A DNA stretch of 64,000 nt, taken from the NCBI RefSeq assembly GCF_001314605.1, contig NZ_LIHP01000004.1, forward strand, positions 372,001 through 436,000. The letters run 5' to 3'. The stretch comes from Marinobacter sp. HL-58. GTDB lineage: Bacteria; Pseudomonadota; Gammaproteobacteria; Pseudomonadales; Oleiphilaceae. Shown here piece after piece: positions 15,248 to 45,866 of this stretch; positions within the stretch are counted from its first letter, which is position 1, and each line of letters begins with the position of its first letter. The notes under the pieces are model-generated. The model worked only from the letters and a program-made list of their open reading frames with translations. It searched no databases and was not told where the DNA came from. The translations under genes were made by a program, and so were the position numbers.

Positions 15248-15271
15248 TCAATTTTCTCCATCCCTGAAAAT

Positions 15272-17055: not shown

Positions 17056-17136
17056 AAGTAACCCGGCAACGATTCCCCGGGCTCGGGCGTAAGCTCTCAG
17101 CTCGCGCCGGGGCTCTGCCCCTTTCCGCAAACATTC

Positions 17137-18231: not shown

Positions 18232-18286
18232 GAATAAACTTCCTGTGATGATCTTGATGCTTTGGTGAGTAGCCTGATACGCGCTA

Positions 18287-18913: not shown

Positions 18914-19035
18914 AGTGTTTCCTTTTATAGTCACCTCTAAGTTCGAGGGCCAGCCTTCCGGCTATGATACGCTTCAAATCTACAAGGCGCGTGGCAAACA
19001 CTCACAACCCAACAGAGAGGGTCACTACAGTCAGT

Positions 19036-19881
19036 ATGACAACCCGCTCCTTCCAACTTGATTTAGAAGAACCATTCAATCTGAGGATGACTGTGGAAAG
19101 CCACGGTTGGTGCCAGCTTGCGCCCTGGCATTGGGACGGCAAGCTCCTCGAACGAACTGTAAAGATCGAGGGCAACAAAGAATGGGTTCGCGTCCAACAA
19201 ATTGATCCGAATCAGCTCAGTATCGAAACATCGTCGCCAGATGACGACAAGGTCACCACACGGGTTTCTCGCTGGCTGCAACTGGACTGGGAACCGTCAG
19301 AATTTCTGGCACTTTGCGACGTCAATGATCCGGCCATTGGTCACTTTGTTCGCTCCGGAGGTGGGCGCTTTCTTCGGGGCGATAGTTTCTTCGAGGACCT
19401 GATTAAAACCGTCTGCACCATCAACACCACATGGCAACAGACCAAAGTCATGGTCGGCTCATTGGTATCTCTCGGAAACGGTTTGTTTCCCGCGCCCAAC
19501 GACATCCTGGAGATCGGTCCTGACCGGCTGGCAGGTGAATGCAAACTTGGCTTCAGGGCCAGAACGGTAACCAACGTAACGGTGCAGTTGCTACACGATG
19601 GTGTTATCAACCAGGACGGATCCGCTGCTGGCGACAGCTCAGTGAATTACGATTACCTGACGTACCTAAAAGGTATCGGCCCCTACTCAGCGGCACATGC
19701 CATGATGCTTTTAAGGGATTTTTCGACTCTGCCGGTGGATTCCGAAGTCAGCGCGTACCTCCGGGAAAGGGGCTTCGATTCCAAGGATGCACAGGAGGCG
19801 TTTCGACACTGGGGGCAATATCGGTTTCTTGGGTACAAGCTAAGGCGAATTATCGATAAGGAGAATTGGATTGGTGACTGA
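19036..19881 (+). CDS. HhH-GPD superfamily DNA glycosylase-like protein
   Basis: A 281-residue protein related to AlkA/OGG-type base excision glycosylases. The helix-hairpin-helix reads LKGIGPYSAAHAMMLL and is followed by a catalytic-type Asp in LPVDSEVSAYL, the expected spacing for the superfamily. The N-terminal half is likely the TBP-like domain found in AlkA/OGG enzymes. No iron-sulfur cysteines are present. The target lesion is unknown. The start at 19036 is chosen because the protein matches from there; its ribosome site is weak. Confidence 0.72.
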   Translation: MTTRSFQLDLEEPFNLRMTVESHGWCQLAPWHWDGKLLERTVKIEGNKEWVRVQQIDPNQLSIETSSPDDDKVTTRVSRWLQLDWEPSEFLALCDVNDPAIGHFVRSGGGRFLRGDSFFEDLIKTVCTINTTWQQTKVMVGSLVSLGNGLFPAPNDILEIGPDRLAGECKLGFRARTVTNVTVQLLHDGVINQDGSAAGDSSVNYDYLTYLKGIGPYSAAHAMMLLRDFSTLPVDSEVSAYLRERGFDSKDAQEAFRHWGQYRFLGYKLRRIIDKENWIGD

Positions 19882-19936
19882 TAATTGAATTAACTGACAA
19901 TCAACACTACTACCAAACCCCAGGGATCGTTCTTCC

Positions 19937-21244
19937 TTAAAACCGGGCCCGATAGTTCTGGGGCAACAGATGCACATGCTGTTCAATGGCCCCCGCCAAA
20001 ATAAAGAATCTCGGAGCTGTGGTAAATTCGTAAACGCGATACAAGCGGAACGCATCTGAGTAGTCATTGGAAAACGCCCGCTCGTTCTCGCTAATGAAAA
20101 ACGGCAGATACTTCCCCGAGTTCGTCGCCTTCACCTCCAGGAAGCGCTCTTGATCACCCGTCGAGTCAAAAGACCGAATGTCGAAACCCAGTCCATCACC
20201 ACGTTCTTTGCTGGACCATTCGACCTCGGCTGCCAGGTCTGGCCGACCCTGGGCGGTGAGCCTCTGCCTTTCCATACGAAGCACGAATTCCTCCGCACGC
20301 TCCCCCAGTTGGCGGTTGCGACGCTCACGCTCAGAGAAGTCGATATGCTTCGCCAGATAGCTGGGCTTGCTCTCGGCGACATGAGGGATACGCTCAGGCG
20401 GTTCCGGATCAAATACCGAATCCCAGCCACGATTATAATATTCCGGCTCATCGGCGACTTTATCAGCGACCTGGTTTACGTCGTCGACGACCTTCTGATG
20501 GCCGGCAAGATAGGACAGAACCACCTGTTTGAGCTGTTGCTGATAGTTAAACGCCGGTTTGTAGCCGGGAATGTATGGGAGTCCCAGTTCGAGCAACACG
20601 GCGCTCACATTCTGATGCTTGTATTCGATGGATCCATCGGTGCGATTATTCAATCGAGGCTGCAGCGCCCTGCGATGCGCAGCTTTGCTGTAGGAGGCGC
20701 CGACAAGATGCTTCTCCAGCATCGCCACATAATCATTGACCAGAAATTCACACTCCAACCAATCCCAGCCGCCACGTTGAGGCTGTAGCAGATCGCGAAT
20801 CGACTTCTCATCCAGACTGGTCATCAGCGCAGATTTTAGAAGCTCACGCGCAATCTGGTTGCCAAGCAACTCGAATAGCTCATCGTCCAGATATGCATAA
20901 TCAATGTGAGCGTCAATAACGCCCTGGGATGTCGCCGTTGTCAGTTGCTGATAGGGCTCCTGCTGACCGGGTCTGATTTTGTGGTGCCAAAAACCCTCAC
21001 TTCGAAGATGGAAAAATGGCAGGTGAGGATTGTTTCGATCCGAAGGCGACGCCAGTGCCTGAAAGCGTTCGGTGAATTGGCGCTTGAGTTTTTCGTCAAA
21101 ATCAAACCGATTGCTCGTAACCTCGCCGGACTCAACGAGATCCATCACCGCCTGCAACATGGCCACTTTGTGAGGGCTCTTGTTAGCACCACCGCTGTTC
21201 AGCCGAAGCGTTGAAAATCGCTTCTCATAATCAAGCAGGCTCAT
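19937..21244 (-). CDS. Putative type IV restriction protein: sulfur-binding-like domain + DUF3883 nuclease-like domain
   Basis: The N-terminal 100 residues (LRLNSGGANKSPHKVAMLQ, then LPFFHLRSEGFWHHK) look like the sulfur-binding domain (SBD) of ScoMcrA-type enzymes, which recognise phosphorothioate-modified DNA. The C-terminus is DUF3883-like: RNRQLGERAEEFVLRMERQ, then GDGLGFDIRSFD and FLEVKAT. The Asp followed by Glu-x-Lys fits a PD-(D/E)xK nuclease-like site. Together they suggest an enzyme that binds and cuts sulfur-modified or otherwise foreign DNA; that is inference. It is the second gene of a coupled pair: its ATG overlaps the stop of the HIT gene (ATGA). It lies at the left edge of a defence island. 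No dnd or ssp modification genes are visible. Confidence 0.65.
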   Translation of the reverse strand: MSLLDYEKRFSTLRLNSGGANKSPHKVAMLQAVMDLVESGEVTSNRFDFDEKLKRQFTERFQALASPSDRNNPHLPFFHLRSEGFWHHKIRPGQQEPYQQLTTATSQGVIDAHIDYAYLDDELFELLGNQIARELLKSALMTSLDEKSIRDLLQPQRGGWDWLECEFLVNDYVAMLEKHLVGASYSKAAHRRALQPRLNNRTDGSIEYKHQNVSAVLLELGLPYIPGYKPAFNYQQQLKQVVLSYLAGHQKVVDDVNQVADKVADEPEYYNRGWDSVFDPEPPERIPHVAESKPSYLAKHIDFSERERRNRQLGERAEEFVLRMERQRLTAQGRPDLAAEVEWSSKERGDGLGFDIRSFDSTGDQERFLEVKATNSGKYLPFFISENERAFSNDYSDAFRLYRVYEFTTAPRFFILAGAIEQHVHLLPQNYRARF

Positions 21245-21636
21245 CGGTCACTCCAGTAATCCGCTTTCTCGGGGATAACCCATCGCACACCACCACGCGG
21301 ATCTTGCTGGTCCCCCGCATACCTCGGAATCAAGTGGCAATGCATATGCATAACCGTCTGGCCAGCCGCCTTGCCGCAATTCATGCCAATATTATAGCCA
21401 TCCGGCTGGTAACGCTCTTCGAGCCACTGCTTGCCCTGCTCGACCAGCTCCATAATAGCTTGTTGTTCAACCGCAGTGAGATCGAACCAGTCGGCGGCAT
21501 GGCGGTTGGGGACGACCAACAAGTGGCCTTGAGAAACTGGAAAGCCATCCAGCCGGATATGAGCCAATGCATTGAACGGCATTGAGCCTTGTTCTGATGT
21601 TTCAGTGTCCGCGCAAAATGGACAGATATCTTTCAT
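21241..21636 (-). CDS. HIT-family nucleotide hydrolase/transferase
   Basis: Small HIT protein of about 131 residues. The defining motif HMHCHLIPR is present, as is an N-terminal CPFC pair that can bind zinc in some HIT proteins. HIT proteins hydrolyse or transfer nucleoside phosphates such as dinucleoside polyphosphates or AMP-lysine. The start at 21636 (MKDICPFC) has GGAAG upstream; the longer frame to 21765 has no support. Its stop overlaps the start of the SBD/DUF3883 gene, so the two are co-translated. That coupling suggests a role with the restriction protein, though none is established. Confidence 0.85.
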   Translation of the reverse strand: MKDICPFCADTETSEQGSMPFNALAHIRLDGFPVSQGHLLVVPNRHAADWFDLTAVEQQAIMELVEQGKQWLEERYQPDGYNIGMNCGKAAGQTVMHMHCHLIPRYAGDQQDPRGGVRWVIPEKADYWSDR

Positions 21637-22152
21637 TACAAACTTCCAGCTACAGATTCTGGTCATGCGAACGCTGTGAATTGAGTAACGGCTAGAACCA
21701 AAGTCACTAAAGACGATTACTAGGCCGCCTGACTGCACTGAATCCGTTAACAACAAATTTGACAATAACTGGTTTCTTCAGTGAAGCAAATCGTAAGCCT
21801 GCCCTAAATTTAGAATATTGCAAAAATCTTATAAGCAAACTACTCTAAGTTCTATGGTGAAAAATTGGTCTAGCTTGTTGTAATCAATGCAATAACTGCA
21901 TTCCTTTGGATAGAGCACTTGGCATGGAAAAGCAGTATTCGTTCTCAATACACCGCCCTCTCCTTCCACAAGCCAGCCGCCATGTCACCCCTCTTTGGCG
22001 CCGAGCGATGGGAAATGCAGTCGCGGACTATTCAGGATTTCTCGCAAAGACCAGTAGACCCTCTGACACGAAAGCCAAATTGTAATCGGCGCCACGCTCC
22101 AAGCATGTTTGAGCTACGCGAGATACCCAAACATGGATAGGTAACTACTTTT
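21637..22152. promoter_or_regulatory. Divergent AT-rich region at the left edge of the defence operon
   Basis: About 515 bases between the leftward HIT gene and the rightward NERD-helicase gene. It should contain both promoters. TTGACA occurs near 21759 but lacks a good -10 partner. I see one inverted repeat close to the rightward start (listed separately) and one 73-codon frame at 21919-22140 of unconvincing composition. Confidence 0.35.
22104..22135. promoter_or_regulatory. Inverted repeat upstream of the DISARM-like operon, possible operator
   Basis: CATGTTTG and CAAACATG form perfect 8-base arms separated by 16 bases, ending 17 bases before the first ATG of the operon. The placement over the leader suits a repressor site or an mRNA hairpin masking the ribosome site. 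No regulator gene is visible in the operon. Confidence 0.4.
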
Positions 22153-23757
22153 ATGAAGATCATTCCTTCTTATATTTGGGACGGGGAGAAGCCTGGGAAT
22201 CAGGCAGAGCATCGTTTCTTTGAGGTTCTGCAAAAATTACCCTTCCCAGAGAAGAGCATTGCATTGCATAGCCAGAATTTGAGGGGCGATAAGAAACAAA
22301 GCTGGTATGAGATAGACTTCCTTATCTTAACGCAAACCTGCATTTACGGAGTTGAGGTCAAAACCGGCTTTTTGTCGAGCCGAGAGGGTGATTGGCGAGT
22401 CCATAAATCCAACATGGATATTGCCTATACGAAAAAGAAGTCACCATATGTCCAAGCGAAAGACGCTACTCTTTACTGGCGCGACAATTGGCTTTTCAAA
22501 CATTTCCCCGAGCTGAGAGGACGCATTGACTGCGCCTATATGGTGGCGCTATTCCAAAACGATGAGTCGAGCCTACAAACGCTTAACTGCCCTGAGCTAC
22601 CTCGAGAAGTCGTTTTGGGAGACCAAGAATTCACAGTCGATGGGCTTCTGAAACGGCTCGAAGAGACGAAGGACTACCACCTCACGCCAACAAAACGACG
22701 AGTTCAAAACCCAGGACTTTCCAAGCAAGAAGTCGAGTTCATCGCTAACAAATTAAGACCAAGTCTGGAGCAATCTTATCCCGCCGGGGTAAGGAACTTC
22801 CTCTTAAAGTCTCAACATGAGCTGACTGAGGAGCAATACAGACTCCTCGATGCTTTGGAAAGCTTTGACCGCCTGCTAATCGATGGTGGCGCTGGCACAG
22901 GAAAAACTTTCGTCCTTACTCATCTAGTTAGAAAAGACGTACTTGCCGGGAAGGCAGTCCTGATTCTCACACGCCCGGAGAAGCTGCGTTCAAAGCTCCA
23001 ACTGCTTCTCAAAGATTTAGACGTTTGCGTACTGGGACCCGAGGACCTAGCCAACATAGAAGACAATCGATTCGACATTCTTTATGTGGACGAAGGCCAA
23101 GATTTATGTGATGAGCAAACCCTTCACGACCTCGACAAGAAACTACGTCGAGGGATGGACAACTCACGCTGGCGTTGGTTTGGCGATTTCCAAAACCAAC
23201 TCGGCGCCGAGCTACACATGTCTGAAGAAGTCTTCGAATTCATCAAGGGGCTGACCGGGAACAATTCAATCTTTCCACTGAAGCGGAATGTTAGGAATAC
23301 CCCGAATGTCGTTCGGTGGCTGGAAGCCATCTGCCACGCAAGAATGGGTGAAACCGTAATGGCAGGAGCCGGACCGGAGGTCCTCATCGAAAACGAGCAC
23401 AGGTTCTCCAGCCTGCTTGAGCAAGTAGCTTCGAACCCAGTTCTTGATGATTCGCCAACGGAGTCGACGGTAATCATCTACCCGGAGGGCTTTTCTGGCG
23501 AGTTTCACTCAAGCACTTTCGGTAACGAAGCCCTTAACAAAAACCTTTTGATAAGCGATTCGGAGAGTTTTAAAGGGCTTGAGTCAGAAGTTGTGTATGC
23601 CTGGGTACCTCCGAAAATAGAAGACTCTGATCTAAAAGACTATCTATATAAAAGTGTGTCACGAGCGAGAGCAATATGTTTCGTCATGACCAAAAACAAA
23701 GACTCATTAATGAAGCAAGCCATGCGGTTGCAGGAATCGAATCATGAACCGAGCTGA
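22153..23757 (+). CDS. NERD-domain nuclease fused to SF1-type helicase/ATPase
   Basis: A 534-residue two-part protein. The N-terminal NERD domain (about 10-130) has the nuclease-type residues EIDFLI (Asp55) and VEVKTG (Glu68-x-Lys70). The C-terminal helicase part has Walker A GGAGTGKT (243-250), Walker B LYVDEGQD, KRNVRNTPNVVRWLE and a late motif KGLESEVVYAWV resembling UvrD-like motif V. The combination points to ATP-driven DNA cleavage. It is the first gene of the defence operon and overlaps drmA by 14 bases. This is not one of the core DISARM genes I know, so it may be an accessory effector replacing a missing nuclease. Confidence 0.8.
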   Translation: MKIIPSYIWDGEKPGNQAEHRFFEVLQKLPFPEKSIALHSQNLRGDKKQSWYEIDFLILTQTCIYGVEVKTGFLSSREGDWRVHKSNMDIAYTKKKSPYVQAKDATLYWRDNWLFKHFPELRGRIDCAYMVALFQNDESSLQTLNCPELPREVVLGDQEFTVDGLLKRLEETKDYHLTPTKRRVQNPGLSKQEVEFIANKLRPSLEQSYPAGVRNFLLKSQHELTEEQYRLLDALESFDRLLIDGGAGTGKTFVLTHLVRKDVLAGKAVLILTRPEKLRSKLQLLLKDLDVCVLGPEDLANIEDNRFDILYVDEGQDLCDEQTLHDLDKKLRRGMDNSRWRWFGDFQNQLGAELHMSEEVFEFIKGLTGNNSIFPLKRNVRNTPNVVRWLEAICHARMGETVMAGAGPEVLIENEHRFSSLLEQVASNPVLDDSPTESTVIIYPEGFSGEFHSSTFGNEALNKNLLISDSESFKGLESEVVYAWVPPKIEDSDLKDYLYKSVSRARAICFVMTKNKDSLMKQAMRLQESNHEPS

Positions 23758-26700
23758 TATAAGAGATCGTGTCTCTGAAGAGATCAAGAGCCTGCTGATT
23801 GGACCTTATGATGGTCCCGATGAAAAGGTATCTGGACGTCTCTCCCTCCGTTATTTGGCTGGAATTCTTTATCCGGTCGGTTCGACACGCGGGCAACTAC
23901 AACAGGAAGAGACCCCGGAGTCTGCAGACACTGGAGGAAGCGATGAGTTCTCTGCAGATTCTGAGAACCCTCTCTCTCTGGCAAACGAGATGCTTCCGTC
24001 GTCAGTTGCTATCTCTTTTTGTGTTCGTAAAGGCTCCGATGTATTCGTTCAGGCTGGGGGCGGACACTATGAACTGGAAGAAAAGTCACCTCAAAAATGG
24101 CAGAGGCATCAACTACCCGATAGCCAATTGACGGTAAACACGGACGAAAGCCAGCGATTCGAAGTACTCGGGGGCGCCGGCAAAATTAGAGTTGCTCGAA
24201 GAGAATCAAACTTTAGTCCTAGCACCGAGATTATTACTGTTGCTCTGTTGAACGCTCATAAGACTACAGACAAAGAAAACGTTGAAGCAACAAAAAATAT
24301 CGAGAAGCGCATTTATCAAGTTACTCTTTCTTGTAGCGCAGAAGGCGGCATTCTGCCCTACGAAGACGTTAGCTCCAACATCGACGATTTAGAGGAGGAG
24401 GTACTGGCACTCCAGTATTCGCAGAACTCCGTTTTTGCTGTGGGTCACGGCGCATCCGTGTCTTGGCTGAGCGATGGAAGCTTGGCCGACACTGTGAGTA
24501 TTGACTACGCACCATCTGCACGCGTCTACAGACCGATATTCGATAGCCTTCAGCTGGACGATGGACGAGTATTCGATTCATCTGAAGTTCTTCGGCTTGG
24601 TTACCTCGCCTCGTCGGACACCTCAAAAAATGATGCAGTTTCAAAGCTCAAAGCGTTCATCAATTTCTATGGGGAATGGATTGAGCTCCAAAAGGCAATT
24701 TCGGTTCCACAGAGGTATGAAAGGTCTCGAGATCACCTTATTTCTGAGATGTCGAAGTGTTTCGACAGGATGCACCGTAGCGTTGATCTTCTTGAGCAGA
24801 GGGACGACTGTTGGCAAGCATTCCAACTTGCAAACGCAGCAATGCTAATACAGATGGATCAGAATGATAGGATCAACACGTTACGGACAGCCAGAAGCAG
24901 CGAAGGAAAAAGTTGGCCGATTCCTGCCGACGAGGCAGTCCACCCGGGCGACAACACGATTCCAGACCAGCTTCCCAACAGCTGGCGTCCATTCCAGTTG
25001 GCATTTTTTCTCCTCACAATGTTTGACCTCGAACACCCGGAGGAAGAGGACGCCAGCACTGTAGATTTGATTTGGTTCTCTACGGGTGGCGGTAAAACCG
25101 AAGCTTATCTGCTATTGGCAGCCTACGAGCTAATCCGGCGACGGCACCGATTCGCTGATCCAGACACTGGAAGCGGAACCGGGGTGATTACTAGATACAC
25201 TCTTCGTTTCCTGACGGCCGACCAATTCGCACGAACCGGCTCTTTGATTTGTGCATTGGAGAAGCTGCGCCAGGCTTGCGACTACAAGCTTGGCGATGCT
25301 CCTTTTTCTCTAGGGTTGTACGCTGGTGGCTCGGTTTCTTACAACAAAATCGCTGACGCCGAACAAGCAATCTCAAAACTCCAGAACAATCCCGCCGAGG
25401 ATCATCTTTTCCAACTAGACTACTGTCCCAACTGCGGCACATCTCTACTACCTAGCGAACCAAAGTTTGATGATAACGGAGAGCCAGACCTCTCCCAGCT
25501 AGGCTACTCGATCGTTGAAAACCACGTTCACGTCCATTGCACAAATGATGGCTGTTTGTTTTCGAATTCAACAGGACTACCCATCAAAACTGTCGATGAG
25601 GATATTTTTGAAACGCCGCCCAGTTTTCTTCTTGGCACGGTCGACAAATTCGCTAATTTCGCTTTTGGCAAACGGGAAGGAAGCATCTTTAAAGGAAGAG
25701 ATGGGAAAAAGGCTCCTCCAAGTCTGATAATTCAGGACGAACTGCATCTCATATCAGGTCCACTCGGCACCATAGCTGCAGTTTACGAGAGCGCCTTCGA
25801 CGCCATCATCAGGTTCCAGAATCAAGCACTCGGGTTTGGGGAGCGTGGACCAAAGTATATTGCATCGAGCGCAACCGTCCGCGATTCTGACACCCAGATA
25901 CAACGCCTCCTGGGCAGAAGTTCCGCAATATTTCCGCCTCGAGGAATCTCTTCCGCTGACTCCTTCTTTTCTAAGGAAGACCGAGACCTCCAAAGCTCAC
26001 GTCTATATATGGGAATCATGGCCCAAGGCTTGAACTCCACCTCTGCAGCCCACTGGACCGCTGCGGCGATGCTCCAAGCAGTTCGAGGAGTCTGTGAGTC
26101 AAATTCATTGAGTGCCAAAGAGATTGATTTCCTGTGGTCTCTGGTCTGTTACTGCAATAGTAAAAGAGAGCTCGGGCTAATCAATGCGTCTACGAACGAT
26201 GAAATTCTTTCAAGAATGCGCGTATATCGGGCAATTCAAAGGTTGGACGAAACCAATCTCAAAGAACTTCGCAAGGAGGAAGTGAGTAGTCAGGGCGTGA
26301 AAAGCATCTCTGAAACACGAGGAAATCTTCTAATACCGCTGTCAGATAATCGCGATACTCCCGTCAGAGACTTTATTCCGGCGACAAATATGATTTCTGT
26401 CGGTGTGGATATTGATCGGCTCGGCGCAATGATGATCAACGGACAACCTAAAACTACGGCAGAGTACATTCAAGCTTCTTCGAGGGTTGGCCGAGCTCCA
26501 TCAAAGAGGGGGCCAGGTTTGGTGTTAACCCTTTACTCACCCTCAAAACCGAGAGACAGAAGTCACTACGAACATTTCAGAGCCTACCATGAAACACTTT
26601 ACCGGCTTGTCGAACCGACCAGCGTAACGCCTGGCAGTGAACAGGCTCTCGAGCGCGCTTTGCACGCCGCAATTATTATTTCTTTGAGACACTCCATCAA

Positions 26701-27025
26701 GGATTTGAATAACCATCCTAGAGTGAGCTCGTTCGAAAAACCAGAAACGAAAAAAATACTCGACCTATTAAAAGACAGGTTACTTGCGTCATACCCCGAT
26801 CCTCTGCATCAATCTCATGAAAGAGAAACCATTCTACGTCTTTATGATCAGGTCATAGAACGTTGGCGACATCTCGCGGATGAGTTTACGGATCTGGTTT
26901 ATTACTCGAACAGCCGGGGAGATCATTCCCTGATGAGTGATTTTTCTGGGAGGCATTCATCTGGATTCCCCACTATGCGATCAATGAGATCGGTCGATGT
27001 ATCAATCCCCATGAAATTTAGGTAA
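23744..27025 (+). CDS. drmA: DISARM-type helicase DrmA
   Basis: Large SF2 helicase of 1093 residues. Motifs: Walker A STGGGKTEAY near residue 445, a DExH-type box IIQDELHLISG near 664, SSATVRD as motif III, and QASSRVGRAPSKRG as motif VI, with ISVGVDIDRLG before it. The N-terminus (RADIRDRVSEEI, then GPYDGPDE and RYLAGILYPVG) and the pairing with a DUF1998 protein match DrmA, which in DISARM works with DrmB to recognise and block unmodified phage DNA. A CPNCGTS...C segment near residue 565 may bind zinc. It overlaps the upstream NERD-helicase gene and is followed four bases later by drmB. The call rests on motifs and context, not a search. Confidence 0.82.
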   Translation: MNRADIRDRVSEEIKSLLIGPYDGPDEKVSGRLSLRYLAGILYPVGSTRGQLQQEETPESADTGGSDEFSADSENPLSLANEMLPSSVAISFCVRKGSDVFVQAGGGHYELEEKSPQKWQRHQLPDSQLTVNTDESQRFEVLGGAGKIRVARRESNFSPSTEIITVALLNAHKTTDKENVEATKNIEKRIYQVTLSCSAEGGILPYEDVSSNIDDLEEEVLALQYSQNSVFAVGHGASVSWLSDGSLADTVSIDYAPSARVYRPIFDSLQLDDGRVFDSSEVLRLGYLASSDTSKNDAVSKLKAFINFYGEWIELQKAISVPQRYERSRDHLISEMSKCFDRMHRSVDLLEQRDDCWQAFQLANAAMLIQMDQNDRINTLRTARSSEGKSWPIPADEAVHPGDNTIPDQLPNSWRPFQLAFFLLTMFDLEHPEEEDASTVDLIWFSTGGGKTEAYLLLAAYELIRRRHRFADPDTGSGTGVITRYTLRFLTADQFARTGSLICALEKLRQACDYKLGDAPFSLGLYAGGSVSYNKIADAEQAISKLQNNPAEDHLFQLDYCPNCGTSLLPSEPKFDDNGEPDLSQLGYSIVENHVHVHCTNDGCLFSNSTGLPIKTVDEDIFETPPSFLLGTVDKFANFAFGKREGSIFKGRDGKKAPPSLIIQDELHLISGPLGTIAAVYESAFDAIIRFQNQALGFGERGPKYIASSATVRDSDTQIQRLLGRSSAIFPPRGISSADSFFSKEDRDLQSSRLYMGIMAQGLNSTSAAHWTAAAMLQAVRGVCESNSLSAKEIDFLWSLVCYCNSKRELGLINASTNDEILSRMRVYRAIQRLDETNLKELRKEEVSSQGVKSISETRGNLLIPLSDNRDTPVRDFIPATNMISVGVDIDRLGAMMINGQPKTTAEYIQASSRVGRAPSKRGPGLVLTLYSPSKPRDRSHYEHFRAYHETLYRLVEPTSVTPGSEQALERALHAAIIISLRHSIKDLNNHPRVSSFEKPETKKILDLLKDRLLASYPDPLHQSHERETILRLYDQVIERWRHLADEFTDLVYYSNSRGDHSLMSDFSGRHSSGFPTMRSMRSVDVSIPMKFR

Positions 27026-27029
27026 CAAC

Positions 27030-28910
27030 ATGAAAGGCGAAATCAGAAGAGCCCAACTAATTCAAACCTTCGGAGTTGGCGCGATCGTTGATGCTAATGG
27101 TGAAACCTTTGTTGTCAAAGATACGACCTATTGGGATGCCAGAGAAAGAATCGAGTGCGCCCGTCTGTCTCGGCTTATTCAAGGAAAAAGCCTCCGAACT
27201 TTCTCGGGAAACGCAAATGAGGAAGAAGCTGTGCCAGTCGAACGCTTCCCTCGTTGGTATTATTGCCCGGCGTGCAATCGGATGAGGAAGATTTCGAAAA
27301 AAGAGGATTATGAAAACGAAGAGGGACTTTGCCCACGTTGCAAAAATGCCGAGTGCAAACACAAACCAGAAATGATACCCATGCGCTTTGTAGCTTACTG
27401 CAGCAATGGGCACCTTACCGAAATTAATTGGTGGGAATGGGTCCACCAAAAAGCTAGCGCGGCAGAAAATGGTCAATGCAAAGATAAAGACTCTCTCAAG
27501 TTTACTTCTGGAGGTCGTGCGGGCGGTGACTTCCTAGAAATGAAAGTCAAATGCGACAGATGTGGGCTAGAAAAGGATTTGTCCGATATCCAGCGTCAGG
27601 TCGCTAAGCCGAATGTCGTTGAAGGTTATGGCCAGTCTTGTTACGGCAGGCAGCCTTGGCAAAAATTCGAAGATCGGGAGGCTTGCAAAGCACAAATGAA
27701 GATCGAACCGCGCGGGAGCTCCTCTATCCACCGCTCTTTGGTTCTCTCCGCTTTAGATATTGAAGAAGGAGTTCACTCGCAATTCAAAAGTGATATCAGT
27801 TCTCAGGCAAGAACTGCGATAGAAAGAAAGTGTCAAAAACTTATAGAACGATCTCAGGGGACTCGGCAGATCCTTCAAACTAAAGTGATGCAGAAATCGG
27901 AAGATATTCGGGATCAATTGGCTAACATTGCAGAGATATTTACAGACGACGAGGATGAACTAGTCGAGTACGGTTTTCAGTTCCTATTAAATGAGCTTAC
28001 AACGGCAGCTCCCGAACTCGAGGAAGCAGAAGATGCTCAGTTAGAGCTTCTGGACGCAGAGTATGCTCTTCTCGCACAAGGAAAGGACATTGAACAACCA
28101 AATTTCAAAGTTTTCTTTAACGATTGCTCTGAGGACGCCGACCCAATTCTTAGCCGGGTATTCTCGAGAATTGGTCAGGTAAAGCGTCTCCGAGAAGTAA
28201 GGGCATTCAAAGGTTTTGTTCGAGGAGAAGGAAAAACCGAACTTTCGCCTGACCTTGGCGGGAATCAGAATTGGGTACCCGCAATTGAGGCTTTTGGGGA
28301 AGGTATATATTTTGAATTTAATCAAGACACCCTAACTACCTGGTTGGAGAAATCTGGCCAGCAAGTCAGTCACGCCCTCACAAAGCAACTCAATGCACTA
28401 GAGAAACTTCAGGAAAGAGTTAAGATCGGTGTTGTAGAGGACCCAATATTCATACTTGCTCATACTGTCGCCCACATTTTAATCCGAGACCTAACTTTCC
28501 GCTCGGGGTACTCATCTTCAGCCCTAAGGGAACGAATTTTCTGTGTCCCCGACGAAAAACGAGCAGGAATACTCATTTACACGACAGACACAGACACTGA
28601 GGGCACACTAGGCGGCCTCGTTGATCAGGCTCGTCCCGAAATTCAATCTCATCTTCTGAGAAATCTAAGCAACCTGACTAGCTGGTGTTCCGCAGACCCC
28701 GTGTGTCGCGAAACTAAGGAATCCGGGTTCCAAGGCGTCAATCAGGCAGCATGTCATTGTTGTGCCCTTGTCTCCGAGACCAGTTGCGGACACCAGAATG
28801 CAGGGCTCAATCGTTTACTTCTGTCAGGGATGGGCGAAAAGTTTGGTGAGCCTTTGGGCTTTCTAAGTTTTGTAGAGGAGACAGCACGTGAGGATGCCAA
28901 CGTTTGCTGA
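27030..28910 (+). CDS. drmB: DISARM-type DUF1998 protein DrmB
   Basis: Partner of DrmA, 626 residues. The N-terminus reads RRAQLIQTFGVGAIVD, typical of DrmB, followed by two zinc-ribbon-like CxxC pairs (YYCPACNRM and GLCPRCKNAEC), then AYCSNGHLTEINWWEWVH. The C-terminal DUF1998 part contains LAHTVAHILI, then TDTDTEGTLGGL and a Cys-rich segment ACHCCALVSETSCGH, likely another metal site. In DISARM, DrmA and DrmB form a complex that senses DNA ends. The start follows drmA by four bases and the stop overlaps the next gene by 23 bases. Confidence 0.85.
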   Translation: MKGEIRRAQLIQTFGVGAIVDANGETFVVKDTTYWDARERIECARLSRLIQGKSLRTFSGNANEEEAVPVERFPRWYYCPACNRMRKISKKEDYENEEGLCPRCKNAECKHKPEMIPMRFVAYCSNGHLTEINWWEWVHQKASAAENGQCKDKDSLKFTSGGRAGGDFLEMKVKCDRCGLEKDLSDIQRQVAKPNVVEGYGQSCYGRQPWQKFEDREACKAQMKIEPRGSSSIHRSLVLSALDIEEGVHSQFKSDISSQARTAIERKCQKLIERSQGTRQILQTKVMQKSEDIRDQLANIAEIFTDDEDELVEYGFQFLLNELTTAAPELEEAEDAQLELLDAEYALLAQGKDIEQPNFKVFFNDCSEDADPILSRVFSRIGQVKRLREVRAFKGFVRGEGKTELSPDLGGNQNWVPAIEAFGEGIYFEFNQDTLTTWLEKSGQQVSHALTKQLNALEKLQERVKIGVVEDPIFILAHTVAHILIRDLTFRSGYSSSALRERIFCVPDEKRAGILIYTTDTDTEGTLGGLVDQARPEIQSHLLRNLSNLTSWCSADPVCRETKESGFQGVNQAACHCCALVSETSCGHQNAGLNRLLLSGMGEKFGEPLGFLSFVEETAREDANVC

Positions 28911-30378
28911 ATTAGATTCAGATCAGCGCGGAATTTACACTGAATCACCTGCCAATAGGGCAGTATTAGTTACTGGACCTCCTGGGACAGGAAAAACCGT
29001 GGTGGCTTTCCATCGGGCTCTTAGGCTATCAAAAGGGGGAAAGCCGGTTACCTTGTTAATGTTCAACAACGTGCTTTCCAAGTATGCAGATAGCGTCGAC
29101 ATTGAGCATGACATAACCATTTGTAACTTGCACAAATGGGTGGACCATTGGTTCCGACATGCCTTCAAGAAGCGTGCACCGCATAAGACTCGGTTCGACA
29201 TAAACTGGCAAGCGATTGGCAAGACTATTCGAGAAACAACTGATATTTCGATTTTGCATAGACTTTGCTGGGGACACCTTATAATCGATGAGGGGCAGGA
29301 TTTCCCGGTATCTATGTATGAAGCTTTTATGGACCTGATAGACCATCCATTGTTGGAAGAAGCTTCTCGCCCTACGCTTACTGTTTTTGCCGACGAAAAC
29401 CAAACAATTACCGAGAATAATTCTACCTTGCAAGAAATTCGGCAAACATTAGATGTTGGCGTTCGAAACAAAAGATATTGGCGGCTTTTTAAAAACTACC
29501 GGAACACTCGAGAGATATCTGAATTTTCAACTTTTTACCAATTAACTGGTAGGTCAGCGGCTAAAGCCCCAGATCGTGGCGGAATGAAGCCTCAAGTAAT
29601 AATGCTTCCGGACCACGCTGCAGTTGCCGAGCATATAACAAATTTTGTCATAAACAATGGTCAGGTTGAGGTTGGCGTTCTGTCATTTGGGAAAAAAGGT
29701 GATGTGAAAAACATATATTCCGAGCTTAATAAGGCCAAAGAAGAAAAAAAATCAAAGCATACAGTGCAAATGTACGTGAACGGACCTGCTAAAGAAAGCA
29801 TTCACCATGACGCCAAATACCTAAAATTCGGAACGCCACCCTCTATTACTGTACTTCACAACAAGAGTTCAAAAGGGCTAGAGTTTGATGCTGTCTTTAT
29901 AGTGAATATGCATAGGGATAGCCGAGCATTCGATGCAAGTGCACAAGAATTAATAAAAGATATGTACGTTGTTTCATCGCGAGCCAGAAATACATTATTT
30001 TTTGATATTGTGTGCTTTGGCGACTCACTACCACAAATAACTCGATTACTTCCCTCACCCGAATCCAGGCTCTGTGGATATACTGCCAACACTGAATGGA
30101 AGTCGGAGTTGCGTGAGAAGCTCAAGCATGTTCCGTGGTCAGAAACAGAGGAAATGGCTGATCAAATTAGAGCAGACACATTGGCAGATGAAATTCTATC
30201 TCTCGGGGATGATGCTCCACTCCTCTTATCCAGCTTAATTGAAAGCTCGAAAAAACATATGATTTTGAAGCATGGAATCAAAGAATACACAAGTGGTCTC
30301 GATAAGCAAAACATCGTTCGTTTGATAAAAGAGATCGGGTGCCATAGAGTTGAAAAAGACTTAATGACTACAGCCTAA
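28888..30378 (+). CDS. SF1 helicase/ATPase (UvrD/DUF2075-like) in the defence operon
   Basis: A 496-residue ATPase. Walker A is TGPPGTGKT (about 31-39), Walker B is LIIDEGQDF, then LFKNYRNTREI (motif IV-like), HNKSSKGLEFDAVF (motif V) and VVSSRARNTLFF (motif VI). It starts with a GTG at 28888 with GAGGAG seven bases upstream, inside the end of drmB; an ATG lies two codons later. It resembles the helicase half of the first operon gene but lacks a NERD domain. The C-terminal 100 residues are helical and unrecognised. Its stop abuts the next gene. Confidence 0.78.
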   Translation: MRMPTFAELDSDQRGIYTESPANRAVLVTGPPGTGKTVVAFHRALRLSKGGKPVTLLMFNNVLSKYADSVDIEHDITICNLHKWVDHWFRHAFKKRAPHKTRFDINWQAIGKTIRETTDISILHRLCWGHLIIDEGQDFPVSMYEAFMDLIDHPLLEEASRPTLTVFADENQTITENNSTLQEIRQTLDVGVRNKRYWRLFKNYRNTREISEFSTFYQLTGRSAAKAPDRGGMKPQVIMLPDHAAVAEHITNFVINNGQVEVGVLSFGKKGDVKNIYSELNKAKEEKKSKHTVQMYVNGPAKESIHHDAKYLKFGTPPSITVLHNKSSKGLEFDAVFIVNMHRDSRAFDASAQELIKDMYVVSSRARNTLFFDIVCFGDSLPQITRLLPSPESRLCGYTANTEWKSELREKLKHVPWSETEEMADQIRADTLADEILSLGDDAPLLLSSLIESSKKHMILKHGIKEYTSGLDKQNIVRLIKEIGCHRVEKDLMTTA

Positions 30379-30390
30379 GTGGAAAATATT

Positions 30391-31992
30391 ATGAACAATT
30401 TCTACATCCCCATTACAGAAATTGGGCTAGTGGAATTTTTGAGCTCAGGATTCATCGGCGTCTCCACAAGCAAAGTCCAATATAATGATATCCACACCAG
30501 GCTTTGGCCGAACACTGTTGTGGTTAAGAATATAGAGGACTCTCCACTTCCTATTTGCTGTGAGGTGGAGCTTAAAGGTCGGGCCTATTCTCTCCCATGC
30601 AAATTGGGCAGAAAAAAAGTTCAACTATATAGAGTCAAATCCGCGCTATCCATAAATGAAATTAAAAGAATTCACTTTTCATCCGAAGAGGCACTAAACG
30701 AATTCATATCAAAATACCATTACATGAGCGATTTGGACATAGAAAACCTTCCCGTATCTGTTAGCGAATCGCTTATGGAATGTAAAGAATTTGCCTCGAA
30801 TGATATTGGAGGTGATGTAGAACTGATTGAGAATAAAAAGATAGATATAGATGACACTTGCTCGAAAGAAAGGCTAATTAACGATGGGAAATCAATCATA
30901 GCTTTCACCTACGCACTCCATAATCATTTAAAAGGAAATTCACGAAAGGAAATCCCTATTCTATCGACACGAAATGACGTAGATGTGGCTATATCTGAGC
31001 TAGTATCGCACCTTGGCGTTACGCTACCGCCAAAAGGGCTCAATCTCCTGTTACGTGAGTATTGGGAGCTTTGCAGGTCCGATAGCATTGATGCTCGCTC
31101 CGACCAAATGGAGATCGTTGACCTGCTTCAAGAAAAATTGCATTCCATTCCAGAGGATAGTAGCGAAGTAAAGAAGTCAATTTCTTTTCTTGAGAAAATT
31201 TCAAGCGTTTTCATGGGAATGGAACCTCATCCACAACTAGATGAAAAAAGCCCAGAAAAGGCATTTCAGTTCGGGTTCTACGTTTCATTAATGGCCAAGA
31301 CAGCAAGCGAATTTTCTGAACTAAGAAATAGGTTCCGGTTTTCAGATCAGGTAGAAGCAATTGCCAAGTATTTTTTCTCATTACGCAGCCGCTTTAGCCA
31401 ACTCACTAGCGACTTCTTTAGCTCCTTCGGCACCCAAAAAAGCTCCTGGGCGTCAGCAATTCTGGATTGCTGCTTTGCATCAAAAGCCGTAATCGAACTT
31501 AGCACCAGAAAAGGAAATGAAGACCTTCGCGTAACATATGACTTAGCAGTCAACGGAAAAGAAATTGGAGCAACAACCAGAGATATTAGCCCTGAGGAAC
31601 AGCTAGTAGTATCGACGCTACGAACATTCTCAATTGAGCCGTTCAGAGACGAGCACTCTGGCGACATAGCTGTGAGAAAGTATGTTCAGTCCAAGCCGAT
31701 TGTAGTCACGCTAAAAATATTCAACTCTATGAGTAATCACCAGCTAAACGAGGTGCACGTCCAATACGAAACGTCACTGAAACACGGTGTCTTGAGCAAG
31801 GCAAACACTCGCCTTCAGGTACTAAAATTAGTGACGGAACAAGGGGTCGCTCTCGGCGTTAATGAAGAAGGCAAGCTTCTCCTTACACGGTTGCAAATGG
31901 TCGACACTATGGATCGCGACGAACTATGGCACCATGTAGAGCAGGTAGCCGACGGAGGTGCGTTAATCGAGGAGTTAGTCTCTACGATCTAA
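30391..31992 (+). CDS. Uncharacterised protein of the DISARM-like operon
   Basis: I do not recognise this 533-residue protein. It has no signal peptide, membrane segment or nucleotide-binding loop. The N-terminal 110 residues look like a beta-rich domain (GVSTSKVQYNDIHTRLWPN); the middle is helical with LRNRFRFSDQVEAIAKYFFSLRSRF; the C-terminus is alpha/beta (VTYDLAVNGKEIGATTRDISPEEQ). I chose the ATG at 30391, which has GGAA upstream, over a GTG at 30379 that abuts the previous stop. Codon use is AT-rich like its neighbours. Position within the operon suggests a needed part of the system; it could be a lineage-specific replacement for DrmC or DrmE. Confidence 0.75.
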   Translation: MNNFYIPITEIGLVEFLSSGFIGVSTSKVQYNDIHTRLWPNTVVVKNIEDSPLPICCEVELKGRAYSLPCKLGRKKVQLYRVKSALSINEIKRIHFSSEEALNEFISKYHYMSDLDIENLPVSVSESLMECKEFASNDIGGDVELIENKKIDIDDTCSKERLINDGKSIIAFTYALHNHLKGNSRKEIPILSTRNDVDVAISELVSHLGVTLPPKGLNLLLREYWELCRSDSIDARSDQMEIVDLLQEKLHSIPEDSSEVKKSISFLEKISSVFMGMEPHPQLDEKSPEKAFQFGFYVSLMAKTASEFSELRNRFRFSDQVEAIAKYFFSLRSRFSQLTSDFFSSFGTQKSSWASAILDCCFASKAVIELSTRKGNEDLRVTYDLAVNGKEIGATTRDISPEEQLVVSTLRTFSIEPFRDEHSGDIAVRKYVQSKPIVVTLKIFNSMSNHQLNEVHVQYETSLKHGVLSKANTRLQVLKLVTEQGVALGVNEEGKLLLTRLQMVDTMDRDELWHHVEQVADGGALIEELVSTI

Positions 31993-32033
31993 GCCTCTTC
32001 CGTAAGGGCGCTGGCGGCGCGGGGGGTAACGCC

Positions 32034-32741
32034 ATGGGAACAAAGAAGTGCAGTCCACGGCGCAAACAAGCCGAAAATCGAGCCCTTGCTATACCTAGTA
32101 ATACTATCTCCTGGTTCGTTTTTCAGATCATGGAGTGGTTCTCCGAAAATGGCCGAAAGTTCAGTTGGCGCAAAAATGACTACCCGCTGTATCGGGTAGT
32201 CGTAACCGAACTTCTCTTGCAGAGAACGCGAGCTGAGACCGTGGATCGATTTATCGGGAACTTTTTTGAGCTCTACCCGGATTGGCTGACCATTGCCCGC
32301 AGTGAATCAGCCAACCTTCAAAAAGCCCTTGAGCCTTTCGGACTATGGCAGCGGCGAGCTGCAACACTGCGAAAACTTGCGACAGAAATTAAAAACAGAG
32401 GTGGCACATTGCCCGAGAGCCCCGAGGAACTTGTAATGCTCCCCGGGTTCGGACCTTACATCGTTAATGCGGTTCTCCTTTATCGAGAGAAAAGCCCAGT
32501 ACCACTGCTTGACGGCAGCATGGCTCGGCTATTAGAGCGTTACTTCGGCTCTCGTGGACTTGTTGATATTCGTGACGACCCTTTCCTTAATATAATCGCC
32601 AGGCGAGTATTGCGAGAATCGGAGGTCTCACCTCTTTCACTCAACTGGGGGATGCTAGACCTCGCGGCACAAATCTGTGCTCCTGCGAGCCCAAAATGTG
32701 AGCACTGCCCCCTTACCAAGAGATGTCCCTCATCTACTTGA
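32034..32741 (+). CDS. MutY/EndoIII-family DNA glycosylase with 4Fe-4S cluster, Mig-like
   Basis: A 235-residue base-excision glycosylase. The helix-hairpin-helix is LPGFGPYIVNAVLL, the catalytic Asp is in PLLDGSMARLL, and the cluster ligands follow the EndoIII spacing C-x6-C-x2-C-x5-C in CAPASPKCEHCPLTKRC. The residue at the position of EndoIII catalytic Lys and MutY Ser is Tyr, as in the Methanothermobacter Mig T:G mismatch glycosylase. A T:G enzyme would repair deaminated 5-methylcytosine, which fits the convergent cytosine-5 methyltransferase next door. The start at 32034 has a G-rich site upstream; frames to 31926 overlap the previous gene. It is 41 bases past the unknown protein, so probably co-transcribed. 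Confidence 0.82.
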   Translation: MGTKKCSPRRKQAENRALAIPSNTISWFVFQIMEWFSENGRKFSWRKNDYPLYRVVVTELLLQRTRAETVDRFIGNFFELYPDWLTIARSESANLQKALEPFGLWQRRAATLRKLATEIKNRGGTLPESPEELVMLPGFGPYIVNAVLLYREKSPVPLLDGSMARLLERYFGSRGLVDIRDDPFLNIIARRVLRESEVSPLSLNWGMLDLAAQICAPASPKCEHCPLTKRCPSST

Positions 32742-32755
32742 AATAGATAGTGTGC

Positions 32756-34165
32756 CTATGCCGCAGTTGAGGCAGCTTTCGTATCTCGAACAAACGAATC
32801 TACGATATTCTTTAACTCATCACGCAAGAAACAACCCAAACCTTCCGCCATTAGCGGTGGGACGGCGTTTCCCACCTGCGTGTACTTTGGACACGTAGAT
32901 TTCCTGAGGCTTCCGCCAGTCGTGTAAGGTCCTTCGAATCTGAACCAATCTGGAAATGACTGCAAGCGAGCCAATTCTCGAACCGTTAGGATTCGTGGTT
33001 CGTCATAGTGAAGGATGTCATCGGGTAGCGTCGTAACAGTGACTGACGGCTTATCAGGATGCAGTACCGTCAATGTGTGTTTCTTGCTGTTCAGCCTCTC
33101 CTCTCGATACTTGATTGGGAGCGTCTTCCTCCTAGAGAGGAGATACTGATTCTGGAAAGCTGGATTATCTACGTCGTCTAAAATTCGACTGAACCTGTCA
33201 GCCACAGGTTCGCTATGCTTCGGAAGGCGAAGCCCACCGTTTGGTAAATCCTTGTTCCAGTCAGCGGACATCAATCTTTGGTAGTTTCTATCGATGCCAG
33301 TCATAGGGGCGGATTTCGCAATCTGCTGAAAGCCGCTCACAGAGGAGTCCGTCGCGGATTTCTTGTCTCTTGCGCCGGATGCATCCATTGTTTTCAGATC
33401 GCCAATTGCCTCTTTTACACTGACCAAAGAGCCTTGCTTTAAGCCGAGCGATGCACGAAATCTGGTAGCGAAACACTCCAAGCCATGTTCAAGTCGGGGC
33501 CTAAGTGCTTTGCCTGCCGCAATCAGCTCATCAACTGCTTGGTCACTCCCTTCTCCCGAAAAAAGCGTGCCAAACAAGTCTTTCCTAATGCCAATCAGAA
33601 CAAACCTTTGACGGGTCTGCGGCACCCCCCACTGACTGCTGTCTTCGATGAAATGAGCAGTCAAATACCCCGTATTAGCAAGCTCCTTCTCAATTTTTTC
33701 CGATACAGCTTCACCGCCGCCACTTTTACCGAACGCGTGTGCGATACCTCGAACGTTCTCCATCACAATGTATCTGGGCTTAACCAAGCTCACGAAGTCC
33801 AAATAGGCAAATACCAAACTATTTCTGGGGTCATCCGGCTCACGTTTGCCCGCCGTGGAAAATCCCTGGCATGGCGGTCCGCCAGCAACTAAATCAACCT
33901 GCCCAGAATCACCTAACTCTCTCAGGTATTCAGTAAGTCTAGGATCGCTCAACAGCTTGGTGATGTCGTGAGCACTTTTACTCAGGCTCGGATGCTCCAA
34001 CCATTCGTAATGCCCATCAAACTTGTCACTTTGACCAAGCAAATTGAACTTTAGCGTCTCGAACGCTTGCTCATTTTTTTCGACGGCTAGTAATCCCTGA
34101 TGACCCGCCTTAAGCAAGCCTAAGGATAGCCCTCCGCACCCAGTAAACAAATCGATAAACTTCAT
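32756..34165 (-). CDS. DNA (cytosine-5) methyltransferase, DISARM DrmMII-like
   Basis: A 469-residue C5-cytosine methyltransferase. Motif I is DLFTGCGGLSLG, motif IV GGPPCQGFS (catalytic Cys), motif VI VMENVRG, motif VIII QTRQRFVLIG, motif IX RELARLQSFPDWF and motif X VGNAVPPLMA. The target-recognition region lies between VIII and IX and does not reveal the site. In class 2 DISARM an enzyme of this type marks self DNA. It is convergent with the glycosylase (14 bases between stops) rather than in the helicase operon. The ATG at 34165 is used because the frame's 34174 start would be TTG. Confidence 0.9.
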   Translation of the reverse strand: MKFIDLFTGCGGLSLGLLKAGHQGLLAVEKNEQAFETLKFNLLGQSDKFDGHYEWLEHPSLSKSAHDITKLLSDPRLTEYLRELGDSGQVDLVAGGPPCQGFSTAGKREPDDPRNSLVFAYLDFVSLVKPRYIVMENVRGIAHAFGKSGGGEAVSEKIEKELANTGYLTAHFIEDSSQWGVPQTRQRFVLIGIRKDLFGTLFSGEGSDQAVDELIAAGKALRPRLEHGLECFATRFRASLGLKQGSLVSVKEAIGDLKTMDASGARDKKSATDSSVSGFQQIAKSAPMTGIDRNYQRLMSADWNKDLPNGGLRLPKHSEPVADRFSRILDDVDNPAFQNQYLLSRRKTLPIKYREERLNSKKHTLTVLHPDKPSVTVTTLPDDILHYDEPRILTVRELARLQSFPDWFRFEGPYTTGGSLRKSTCPKYTQVGNAVPPLMAEGLGCFLRDELKNIVDSFVRDTKAASTAA

Positions 34166-34335
34166 ATGATTCAATTGTTCGCGCCCGACGTCCTTGATGG
34201 TTGCATCATAGCACCCTTAGAGAAACCCTGCTCATCAAGTCGGCTTGCGAACTCGATTTTGGTGATCGGTTTCGGTTACCGGGGTACCATTCGGAGCATG
34301 GTCAAGTAGCGGCCGGCGATGTTGAACATTGGCTC

Positions 34336-34650
34336 CTACTCATAGGTCTTGAGGGACGGAGTGCCCTGTTCCTCCGATGCTTGAATATCCACAGGCGGCA
34401 CTCCTAGATCCTGTCACTTTTTCGAATGGCAGGTAAACAGCAGTATCTGATGCCGGCTGGCCGCATTAAACACGATGCGCTTCATATCTTCGAGGCGCTC
34501 AATGTCCCTATGTACCAGTGTTTCGTCCAGTATCACCAGGGTCGACCTTTCGGCTTCCCGCAGCAGATCGGTATGAGCCAGGCGGTTGATCAGCCCCATC
34601 TGTTCCCGCGCCCCAAAACTCAGCTCGGAAATCCGCCCCAGCTGAATGTG
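34336..34650 (-). pseudogene. 3' remnant of an SMC/RecF-like ATPase gene
   Basis: The last ~100 codons of a large SMC-like ATPase can be read on the minus strand: a signature loop ELSFGAREQMGLINRLA, then STLVILDETLVHRD (Walker B and D-loop) and HQILLFTCHSKK. A TGA at 34414 interrupts it where homologues have Trp, after which reading continues in frame through about 25 sensible residues to a TAG at 34336. Upstream of about 34650 the frame is broken and the rest of the gene is absent. It is a decayed gene end between the formate dehydrogenase operon and the defence island, marking a past deletion or insertion junction. Confidence 0.7.
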
Positions 34651-34825
34651 GCATGCCGTAGCTGTTCATCGACCATTTACCAGTCTGCGGTATACAAAAA
34701 CTTTGGCATTTTATGGCCCTGAGAAATCTGGGAAATTTCGCGTCATTCTAGACCGCCCGCCAATATTTTACGGACGCGATTCGACAATCAACGTCGTTCT
34801 GGAGGAGACCGTTTTGTTGCGGACG

Positions 34826-45856: not shown

Positions 45857-45866
45857 GCTCTCATCA

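What the first reader, a model, noticed from the sequence alone, without database searches (positions are those of the whole stretch)
22153..34165. Variant DISARM-like locus with NERD-helicase, extra SF1 helicase, unknown protein and no visible drmC
DrmA- and DrmB-like genes and a cytosine-5 methyltransferase are core DISARM parts. Here they are joined by a NERD-SF1 helicase, a second SF1 ATPase, an unknown 533-residue protein and a MutY-like glycosylase. I see no phospholipase-D-type drmC. Five genes overlap or nearly abut, so they likely act together. The NERD nuclease may replace DrmC as the cutting activity.
Basis: partly seen in the sequence, partly recalled or inferred. Interest (0 to 1): 0.82.

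Follow-up and report, generated by a model that had tools for sequence, protein, structure and literature searches.

The report
DrmC-less DISARM-like phage-defence gene cassette
A seven-gene cassette in a Marinobacter-type genome looks like a relative of the DISARM anti-phage system that lacks the usual DISARM nuclease and carries other helicases, a different nuclease and an unusual unknown protein instead; the same set recurs in a distant bacterium, which helps with the open question of what cuts the DNA in such systems.

Summary
Window 22153-34165 encodes NERD-SF1 helicase (g1), DrmA (g2), DrmB (g3), SF1 helicase (g4), unknown protein (g5), HhH glycosylase (g6) and, convergent, a cytosine-5 methyltransferase (g7). 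No PLD/DrmC domain was found in the seven; no DrmE-family match in the genome. The cassette is 92% identical as DNA in Marinobacter aromaticivorans, in another context. All seven parts recur in another family of the class (L075; 29-46% identity, g5 by position). Among 44 DrmA loci, the 12 whose DrmB is directly followed by a g4-like SF1 helicase fall on one side of a DrmA-tree branch (SH-aLRT 92); none shows DrmC; 7 of 12 have the NERD-helicase. So NERD recurs but is not universal; SF1 helicase plus a g5-position protein (11 of 12) is the steadier signature. Two AlphaFold models of g5-type proteins (pLDDT 66-69) resemble DarT-type ADP-ribosyltransferase plus ADP-ribosylglycohydrolase folds, with a YbjN/secretion-chaperone-like C-terminus in g5. 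That is fold-level only; sequence comparison with one DarT protein gave nothing. g6 resembles MutY and the MIG G:T-mismatch glycosylase and plausibly guards g7-methylated sites. Verdict: a new drmC-less DISARM-like variant; function untested.

The parts
22153..23757 (+). g1: NERD (PD-(D/E)xK-type) nuclease domain fused to SF1 helicase, 534 aa
   Evidence: PF08378 and PF09848; NERD triad E, D, ExK present in 17 of 17 g1-type proteins with letters there (18 aligned, 1 cut short), Walker A in 18 of 18
23744..27025 (+). g2: DrmA-type (YprA-family) SF2 helicase, 1093 aa
   Evidence: PADLOC DrmA E 4e-183; solved Serratia DrmA 7s9v E 8e-106; below NCBIfam DrmA cut-offs
27030..28910 (+). g3: DrmB-type DUF1998/MZB protein, 626 aa
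   Evidence: NF038324 398.6 bits, above cut-off 240
28894..30378 (+). g4: stand-alone SF1 helicase with Walker A, Walker B (DEGQD) and motif V/VI-like segments, no nuclease domain seen; ORF opens at GTG 28888
   Evidence: alignment A2
30391..31992 (+). g5: unknown 533-aa protein; model suggests ART(DarT)-like N-terminus, ARH-like middle, YbjN/type III secretion chaperone-like C-terminus
   Evidence: no family hit; AlphaFold model and fold searches
32034..32741 (+). g6: HhH-GPD glycosylase with C-terminal Cys cluster, MIG/MutY-like, ending at the cluster
   Evidence: PF00730; NCBIfam mutY 126 bits, cut-off 286.5; PADLOC type II nicking endonuclease model 90 bits; PDB matches to MutY and MIG 1KEA; L075 homologue best matches 1KEA
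32756..34165 (-). g7: cytosine-5 DNA methyltransferase (ORF opens at TTG 34174)
   Evidence: PF00145 E 4e-49; PADLOC MTase_II 271 bits, DrmMII 158 bits
21795..34213 (.). stretch shared with M. aromaticivorans L004 at 91.75% DNA identity: the cassette plus about 360 bp upstream
   Evidence: blastn
14700..34796 (.). about 20 kb variable stretch next to a formate-dehydrogenase-like gene that contains the cassette; its edges lie 16 bp apart in Marinobacter-type genome G434

Best explanation
A probably horizontally acquired, drmC-less DISARM-like anti-invader system of a DrmA lineage distinct from class 1 DISARM. Inferred working: g7 methylates host DNA at an unknown motif; g6 repairs the T:G mismatches left when 5-methylcytosine deaminates; DrmA-DrmB (g2-g3) loads on unmodified DNA with single-stranded 5' ends and translocates, as reported for Serratia DrmAB; the SF1 motor g4 and the NERD nuclease-helicase g1 then unwind and cut that DNA in place of DrmC; g5 is a DrmAB-associated adaptor or effector built from ADP-ribosyltransferase-like and ADP-ribosylhydrolase-like folds. 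Shown here: gene content, recurrence, DrmA lineage, intact NERD and helicase motifs. Inferred: every functional step.
For: Profiles. Near-abutting co-directional g1-g6. Same seven parts in L075 of another family (identities g1 29, g2 38, g3 36, g4 34, g6 46, g7 38%; g5 by position, with only a 58-residue 26% local match). Five-gene order NERD-DrmA-DrmB-SF1-unknown on Deinococcus gobiensis plasmid P4. 5 of 6 g5 relatives have a longest contig of the same length as that of a g1 relative (that these are the same contigs is inference). DrmA tree: the 12 SF1-bearing loci on one side of a branch, SH-aLRT 92; grouping them with DrmC-bearing class 1 rejected, p-AU 2e-6. NERD triad kept in 17 of 17. 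NERD-helicase in 7 of 12 A and 0 of 14 class 1 loci (5 of 5 B and 7 of 7 C by definition); DrmC in 0 of 24 A+B+C and 8 of 14 class 1. DrmAB methylation sensing and dispensable DrmC from PMC9142583 (passages).
Against: No activity is shown. NERD was not found in 5 of 12 lineage loci and g6 not in 9 of 12. g2 is below both NCBIfam DrmA cut-offs. Group A was defined by the SF1 gene and loci were drawn by similarity to g2, so counts are not an unbiased census. Branch support is 92, under the tool's 95 mark. g7 lies on the opposite strand and could be an independent orphan methyltransferase; a g7-like gene of 20 bits or more is in only 5 of 12 group A stretches. The g5 fold assignment rests on medium-confidence models.
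Confidence: 0.7

Rival explanations
1. A degenerate or extended class 2 DISARM: C5 methyltransferase + DrmAB, with DrmC lost and the other genes hitch-hiking in a defence island.
For: g7 is a C5 methyltransferase with DrmMII similarity; group C, next to group A in the midpoint-rooted tree, contains DrmE-family loci.
Against: No DrmE-family match in the whole genome; hhalign of g5-position profiles against seven proteins encoded just upstream of the NERD or DrmA gene in group C and L063, three of which match DrmE, gives at most 2.8% in 28 pairs; g4-like and g5-position genes recur in distant families, which hitch-hiking does not predict.
Confidence: 0.15
2. Two neighbouring units: a DrmAB-helicase system (g1-g5) and an unrelated methyltransferase (g7), with g6 serving general repair.
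For: g7 is convergent; 9 of 12 group A loci lack a g6 match and 7 of 12 a g7 match of 20 bits or more (L052 has one of 15 bits, and an annotated dcm begins at the edge of L029).
Against: In L075 the methyltransferase (38%) stands on the same strand directly before g1 and a g6 homologue (46%) closes the run; g6 is found only in loci that also hold g7 (3 of 3); the genome has its own full MutY.
Confidence: 0.12
3. A general recombination/repair cassette, not a defence system.
For: All parts but g5 belong to DNA-processing enzyme families.
Against: g5 is found in 2 of 163 family genomes; the cassette sits in a variable stretch with a DISARM-type core; several relatives are on plasmids.
Confidence: 0.03

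Closest known systems
DISARM class 1 (DrmD, DrmMI, DrmA, DrmB, DrmC; Serratia DrmAB solved, 7s9v/7s9w)
   Same: DrmA-DrmB pair as separate adjacent genes, a DNA methyltransferase nearby
   Different: No DrmD, DrmMI or DrmC found; NERD-SF1, SF1, g5 and glycosylase instead; DrmA branches apart, p-AU 2e-6 against joining
DISARM class 2 (DrmE, DrmMII; class description partly recalled)
   Same: C5 methyltransferase; some class-2-like loci here also have a NERD-helicase before DrmA (L042, L043)
   Different: No DrmE match in the genome, no DrmC in the seven; SF1 + g5-position protein after DrmB
TALON / ARMADA (PMC12458937)
   Same: YprA-family helicase; TALON has a NERD-type nuclease
   Different: No BrxHII, PglX, TPR-CSD or TBP seen among the seven; helicase and DUF1998 parts split as in DISARM
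MIG G:T mismatch glycosylase (1KEA)
   Same: HhH-GPD domain and Cys cluster, ends at the cluster; beside a C5 methyltransferase gene (MIG/M.MthTI pairing recalled)
   Different: Window g6 scores slightly higher against MutY (103.9) than MIG (94.5 bits), its L075 relative the reverse (101.8 v 132.6)
DarT ADP-ribosyltransferases and ARH hydrolases
   Same: Predicted folds of g5-type proteins
   Different: No sequence-level match to the one DarT-family protein compared; catalytic residues not established; both in one protein beside DrmAB

Membership tests
DISARM (any class) | DrmA helicase | tested here: met
   PADLOC DrmA E 4e-183; phmmer to solved DrmA E 8e-106; but below NCBIfam DrmA cut-offs
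DISARM (any class) | DrmB (DUF1998) as a separate neighbour | tested here: met
   NF038324 398.6 bits > 240
DISARM (any class) | DrmC PLD protein | tested here: not met
   No PLD/DrmC match in the seven proteins or the window's ORFs of 100 aa or more; PLDc_2 matches lie on other contigs only. The literature calls DrmC dispensable and often missing
DISARM class 1 | DrmD SNF2-like helicase and DrmMI adenine methyltransferase | tested here: not met
   None among the seven by PADLOC/NCBIfam nor by phmmer over the window's ORFs with one DrmD and one DrmMI query
DISARM class 2 | DrmE | tested here: not met
   NF038316 (DrmE_fam): 0 matches at E 1e-3 in the whole genome
DISARM class 2 | DrmMII cytosine-5 methyltransferase | tested here: inconclusive
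   g7 is a C5 methyltransferase; DrmMII 158 bits, generic MTase_II 271 bits
[quoted passage not shown]
   None of the seven matches; definition from PMC12458937
TALON | TPR-CSD and TBP proteins with NERD nuclease | tested here: not met
   NERD present, the other two not among the seven
MIG-type mismatch glycosylase | HhH-GPD + Cys cluster, G:T mismatch activity | tested here: inconclusive
   Domain met; activity not tested; Tyr after the hairpin, recalled as a MIG mark, is also in the MutY chains aligned
DarT-like ADP-ribosyltransferase (g5 N-terminus) | ART fold | tested here: inconclusive
DarT-like ADP-ribosyltransferase (g5 N-terminus) | catalytic residues and DNA ADP-ribosylation | not testable with these tools

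The most novel reading that the evidence does not exclude
The lineage is a third DISARM-like class in which an ART/ARH-like (ADP-ribosylation-type) protein, in g5 with a chaperone-like tail, works with DrmAB and an SF1 helicase, so that ADP-ribose chemistry, or recognition of ADP-ribosylated DNA or protein by a degenerate writer-eraser pair, is part of a DISARM-type response, and the NERD-helicase is the cutting arm in those members that have it.
Probability: 0.3. Interest if true: 0.82.

Novelty: new variant of a known kind. Interest (0 to 1): 0.62.

Why it matters
Which nuclease finishes the job in DISARM is open: the structural study says DrmC is dispensable and often missing (PMC9142583, passages). 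A DrmAB lineage that shows no DrmC in the loci looked at, but carries its own helicases and often a NERD nuclease, makes that directly testable. One subtype of the g5-position family is common (424 relatives at E 1e-5, 120 of them listed), yet Pfam scans of 46 g5-type proteins gave no match better than E 7.5e-4. An ART-like/ARH-like protein would link DISARM with ADP-ribosylation. The nearest, PMC12458937, holds the word NERD twice; the one passage I saw is on TALON; its supplements were not seen.

Tried and rejected
Viral copies: g5 and the g4 alignment gave no relatives in viral contigs; g5 and g2 no match in the phage collection; g5 none in plasmids. g1 had no PDB sequence match at E 0.1. 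The g5 profile against PDB hit only designed TIM barrels over about 22 residues, taken as spurious; profiles A5 and A4 found no meaningful PDB chain. Pfam PF22546 2CompART matched one g5-position protein, L080, at E 7.5e-4 but below cut-off; PF13151 matched g5 in its helical middle, below cut-off: both kept as hints only. Housekeeping MutY for g6 rejected. The SF1 hit in a Klebsiella record (L040) has no DrmAB annotated beside it and was left out of counts; L051, with only a 188-aa DrmA fragment, was dropped from the tree.

Unresolved: whether P0005 (g5 relative) lies beside g1, as no equal contig length was listed; the opposite-strand place of g7; the target of g7; the place of confirmed class 2 DrmA proteins in the tree (one DrmE-family match in 299 phylum genomes, in G797, already in the tree as L042).
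Full report
WHAT IS THERE. The seven ORFs reported are real. Six (g1-g6) are co-directional and overlap or lie within 41 nt of each other once starts are corrected from the close relative L004; g7 is convergent. Profiles give NERD + SF1 helicase for g1, DrmA for g2, DrmB for g3, SF1 ATPase for g4, nothing for g5, HhH-GPD for g6 and C5 methylase for g7. g2 is clearly of the DrmA family but below both NCBIfam DrmA cut-offs (766 of 950 and 524 of 999 bits). No PLD domain was found in the seven. PLD stretches exist elsewhere in the genome (eight over the cut-off, none on the window's contig); no DrmE-family match does.

RECURRENCE. g5 is rare: 6 relatives at E 1e-3 among 7995 scored candidates of the protein database, 2 of 163 family genomes (own and G401, whose contig length equals that of M. 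aromaticivorans L004), 1 of 369 class genomes (own), none in plasmids or phages. In M. aromaticivorans the whole cassette is kept at 91.75% DNA identity over 12.4 kb. Of 41 genus genomes 14 have the gene to the right of the cassette; I fetched its left side in 7 of the 13 others than own plus one more, 8 in all. In G434 the window's positions 14699 and 34797 lie 16 bp apart; in G480 and G489 the same left segment lies about 0.1 and 1.5 kb from the right gene; in G419 a neighbouring left segment lies about 6 kb away; in the other 4 no such left segment was found. The left segment is only about 450-490 bp long at 75-82% identity, so the island edge is approximate.

A WIDER LINEAGE. With g2 as bait DrmA matches at E 1e-30 came from 12 of 398 phylum, 6 of 163 family and 9 of 369 class genomes (overlapping sets, own counted) and, at E 1e-5, from 85 plasmid records. 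I looked at 44 loci with a usable DrmA: 23 from genomes (window and L004 among them) and 21 of the 85 plasmid records. Groups by neighbours: A, DrmB directly followed by a g4-like SF1 helicase (12 loci); B, UvrD - DrmA - DrmB - NERD-helicase (5); C, NERD-helicase - DrmA - DrmB (7); class 1, with a DrmMI-like gene (14); other (6). By one phmmer test NERD-helicases occur in 7/12, 5/5, 7/7, 0/14, 0/6; DrmC in 0/12, 0/5, 0/7, 8/14, 0/6; a C5 methyltransferase of 20 bits or more against g7 in 5/12, 3/5, 5/7, 1/14, 1/6; g6 in 3/12 and 0 elsewhere. SF1 in A, NERD in B and C, and DrmMI in class 1 are true by definition. Several stretches end at contig or record edges, so absences there are soft. On the DrmA tree (quick method, midpoint root) group A is one side of a branch (92), B one side (100), class 1 with DrmC one side (96), class 1 without DrmC one side (92), and C needs three changes. 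Holding A and DrmC-bearing class 1 together is rejected (p-AU 2e-6). Members of A come from the window's class, Deinococcus and Streptomyces. DrmE-family matches appear in and near C: L042 89 and L043 117 bits over the cut-off of 80, L063 65 and L039 43 below it; none in the proteins scanned from L037, L054, L077, L079, L060 and L059 (10 proteins).

ALL SEVEN TOGETHER. L075 (G140, another family of the class) reads C5 methyltransferase - NERD-helicase - DrmA - DrmB - SF1 - 546-aa unknown - HhH-GPD glycosylase, on one strand, at 38, 29, 38, 36, 34, (26 over 58 residues) and 46% identity. This is the best evidence that g6 and g7 belong. Deinococcus gobiensis plasmid P4 has NERD-helicase - DrmA - DrmB - SF1 - unknown; G390, G343 and G047 have DrmA - DrmB - SF1 - unknown - NERD-helicase; two Photobacterium plasmids and G725 have DrmA - DrmB - SF1 - unknown; G374 has the same followed by a UvrD helicase. 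The Streptomyces locus has no such unknown after SF1, so a g5-position protein is seen in 11 of 12.

THE OTHER PARTS. The NERD triad (E, D, ExK) is kept in 17 of 17 g1-type proteins that have letters there. g6 ends at its Cys cluster, without the further domain of full-length MutY; the genome has a separate MutY of 380 bits, against 130 for g6, whose match there runs past its stop codon. g6 best hits in PDB are MutY 103.9 and MIG 94.5 bits; its L075 relative reverses this, MIG 132.6 and MutY 101.8. In three other loci an annotated Vsr endonuclease stands near a C5 methyltransferase (D. gobiensis, R. opacus, R. rhizogenes), which suits a common need to repair deaminated 5-methylcytosine.

WHAT IS KNOWN. 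PMC9142583 (passages read): DrmAB responds to unmethylated 5'-overhang DNA; DrmC did not co-purify, is dispensable and often missing. PMC12458937 (abstract, sections 7 and 8 and passages read) defines ARMADA, BRIGADE and TALON and describes the typical DISARM nuclease as PLD. PMC10270631 (passages) describes ShdA homologues in DISARM-like operons. PMC8557920 (passages) was read on repair of deaminated 5-methylcytosine; the MIG/M.MthTI pairing itself is recalled. Other papers were seen in listings only.

VERDICT. A real, recurring, drmC-less DISARM-like variant; works like DISARM by inference; not a member of class 1, and not class 2 as tested by DrmE. The NERD-replaces-DrmC idea is plausible for the members with NERD but is not lineage-wide.

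Noticed in passing
window 19937-21765 (-): NOV_C-domain protein (PADLOC PDC-S36, E 9e-98) with a HIT-family protein (ThsC-like, E 6e-13) directly upstream of the cassette: a likely second candidate defence pair.
   Followed up: partly
window 43085-46748 (+): Protein with weak AriA/LmuB/Jet/GajA similarity followed by one with weak JetD similarity: possible further ATPase-effector defence pair.
   Followed up: no
window 50440-51900 (+): First gene of a co-directional run to 56831; weak match to mad2 of the MADS defence system, E 1e-9.
   Followed up: no
L033 15069-15671: A separate DarT-family protein (annotated; matches E. coli DarT1 8baq, E 3.5e-13) after UvrD-DrmA-DrmB-NERD on an Azospirillum plasmid: a second link of ADP-ribosyltransferases to DrmAB loci.
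   Followed up: partly
L031 6132-9953: In Streptomyces a 1273-aa gene annotated sigma-70 family stands directly before DrmA-DrmB-SF1, where g1 stands in the window; a protein with weak sigma-70 similarity also follows DrmB in L060.
   Followed up: no
L032 201-5640 and L038 2401-7702: The same four genes, C5 methyltransferase - hypothetical - DUF2357 - Vsr, lie beside DrmAB loci on Deinococcus and Rhizobium plasmids: perhaps a separate methylation-linked system.
   Followed up: no
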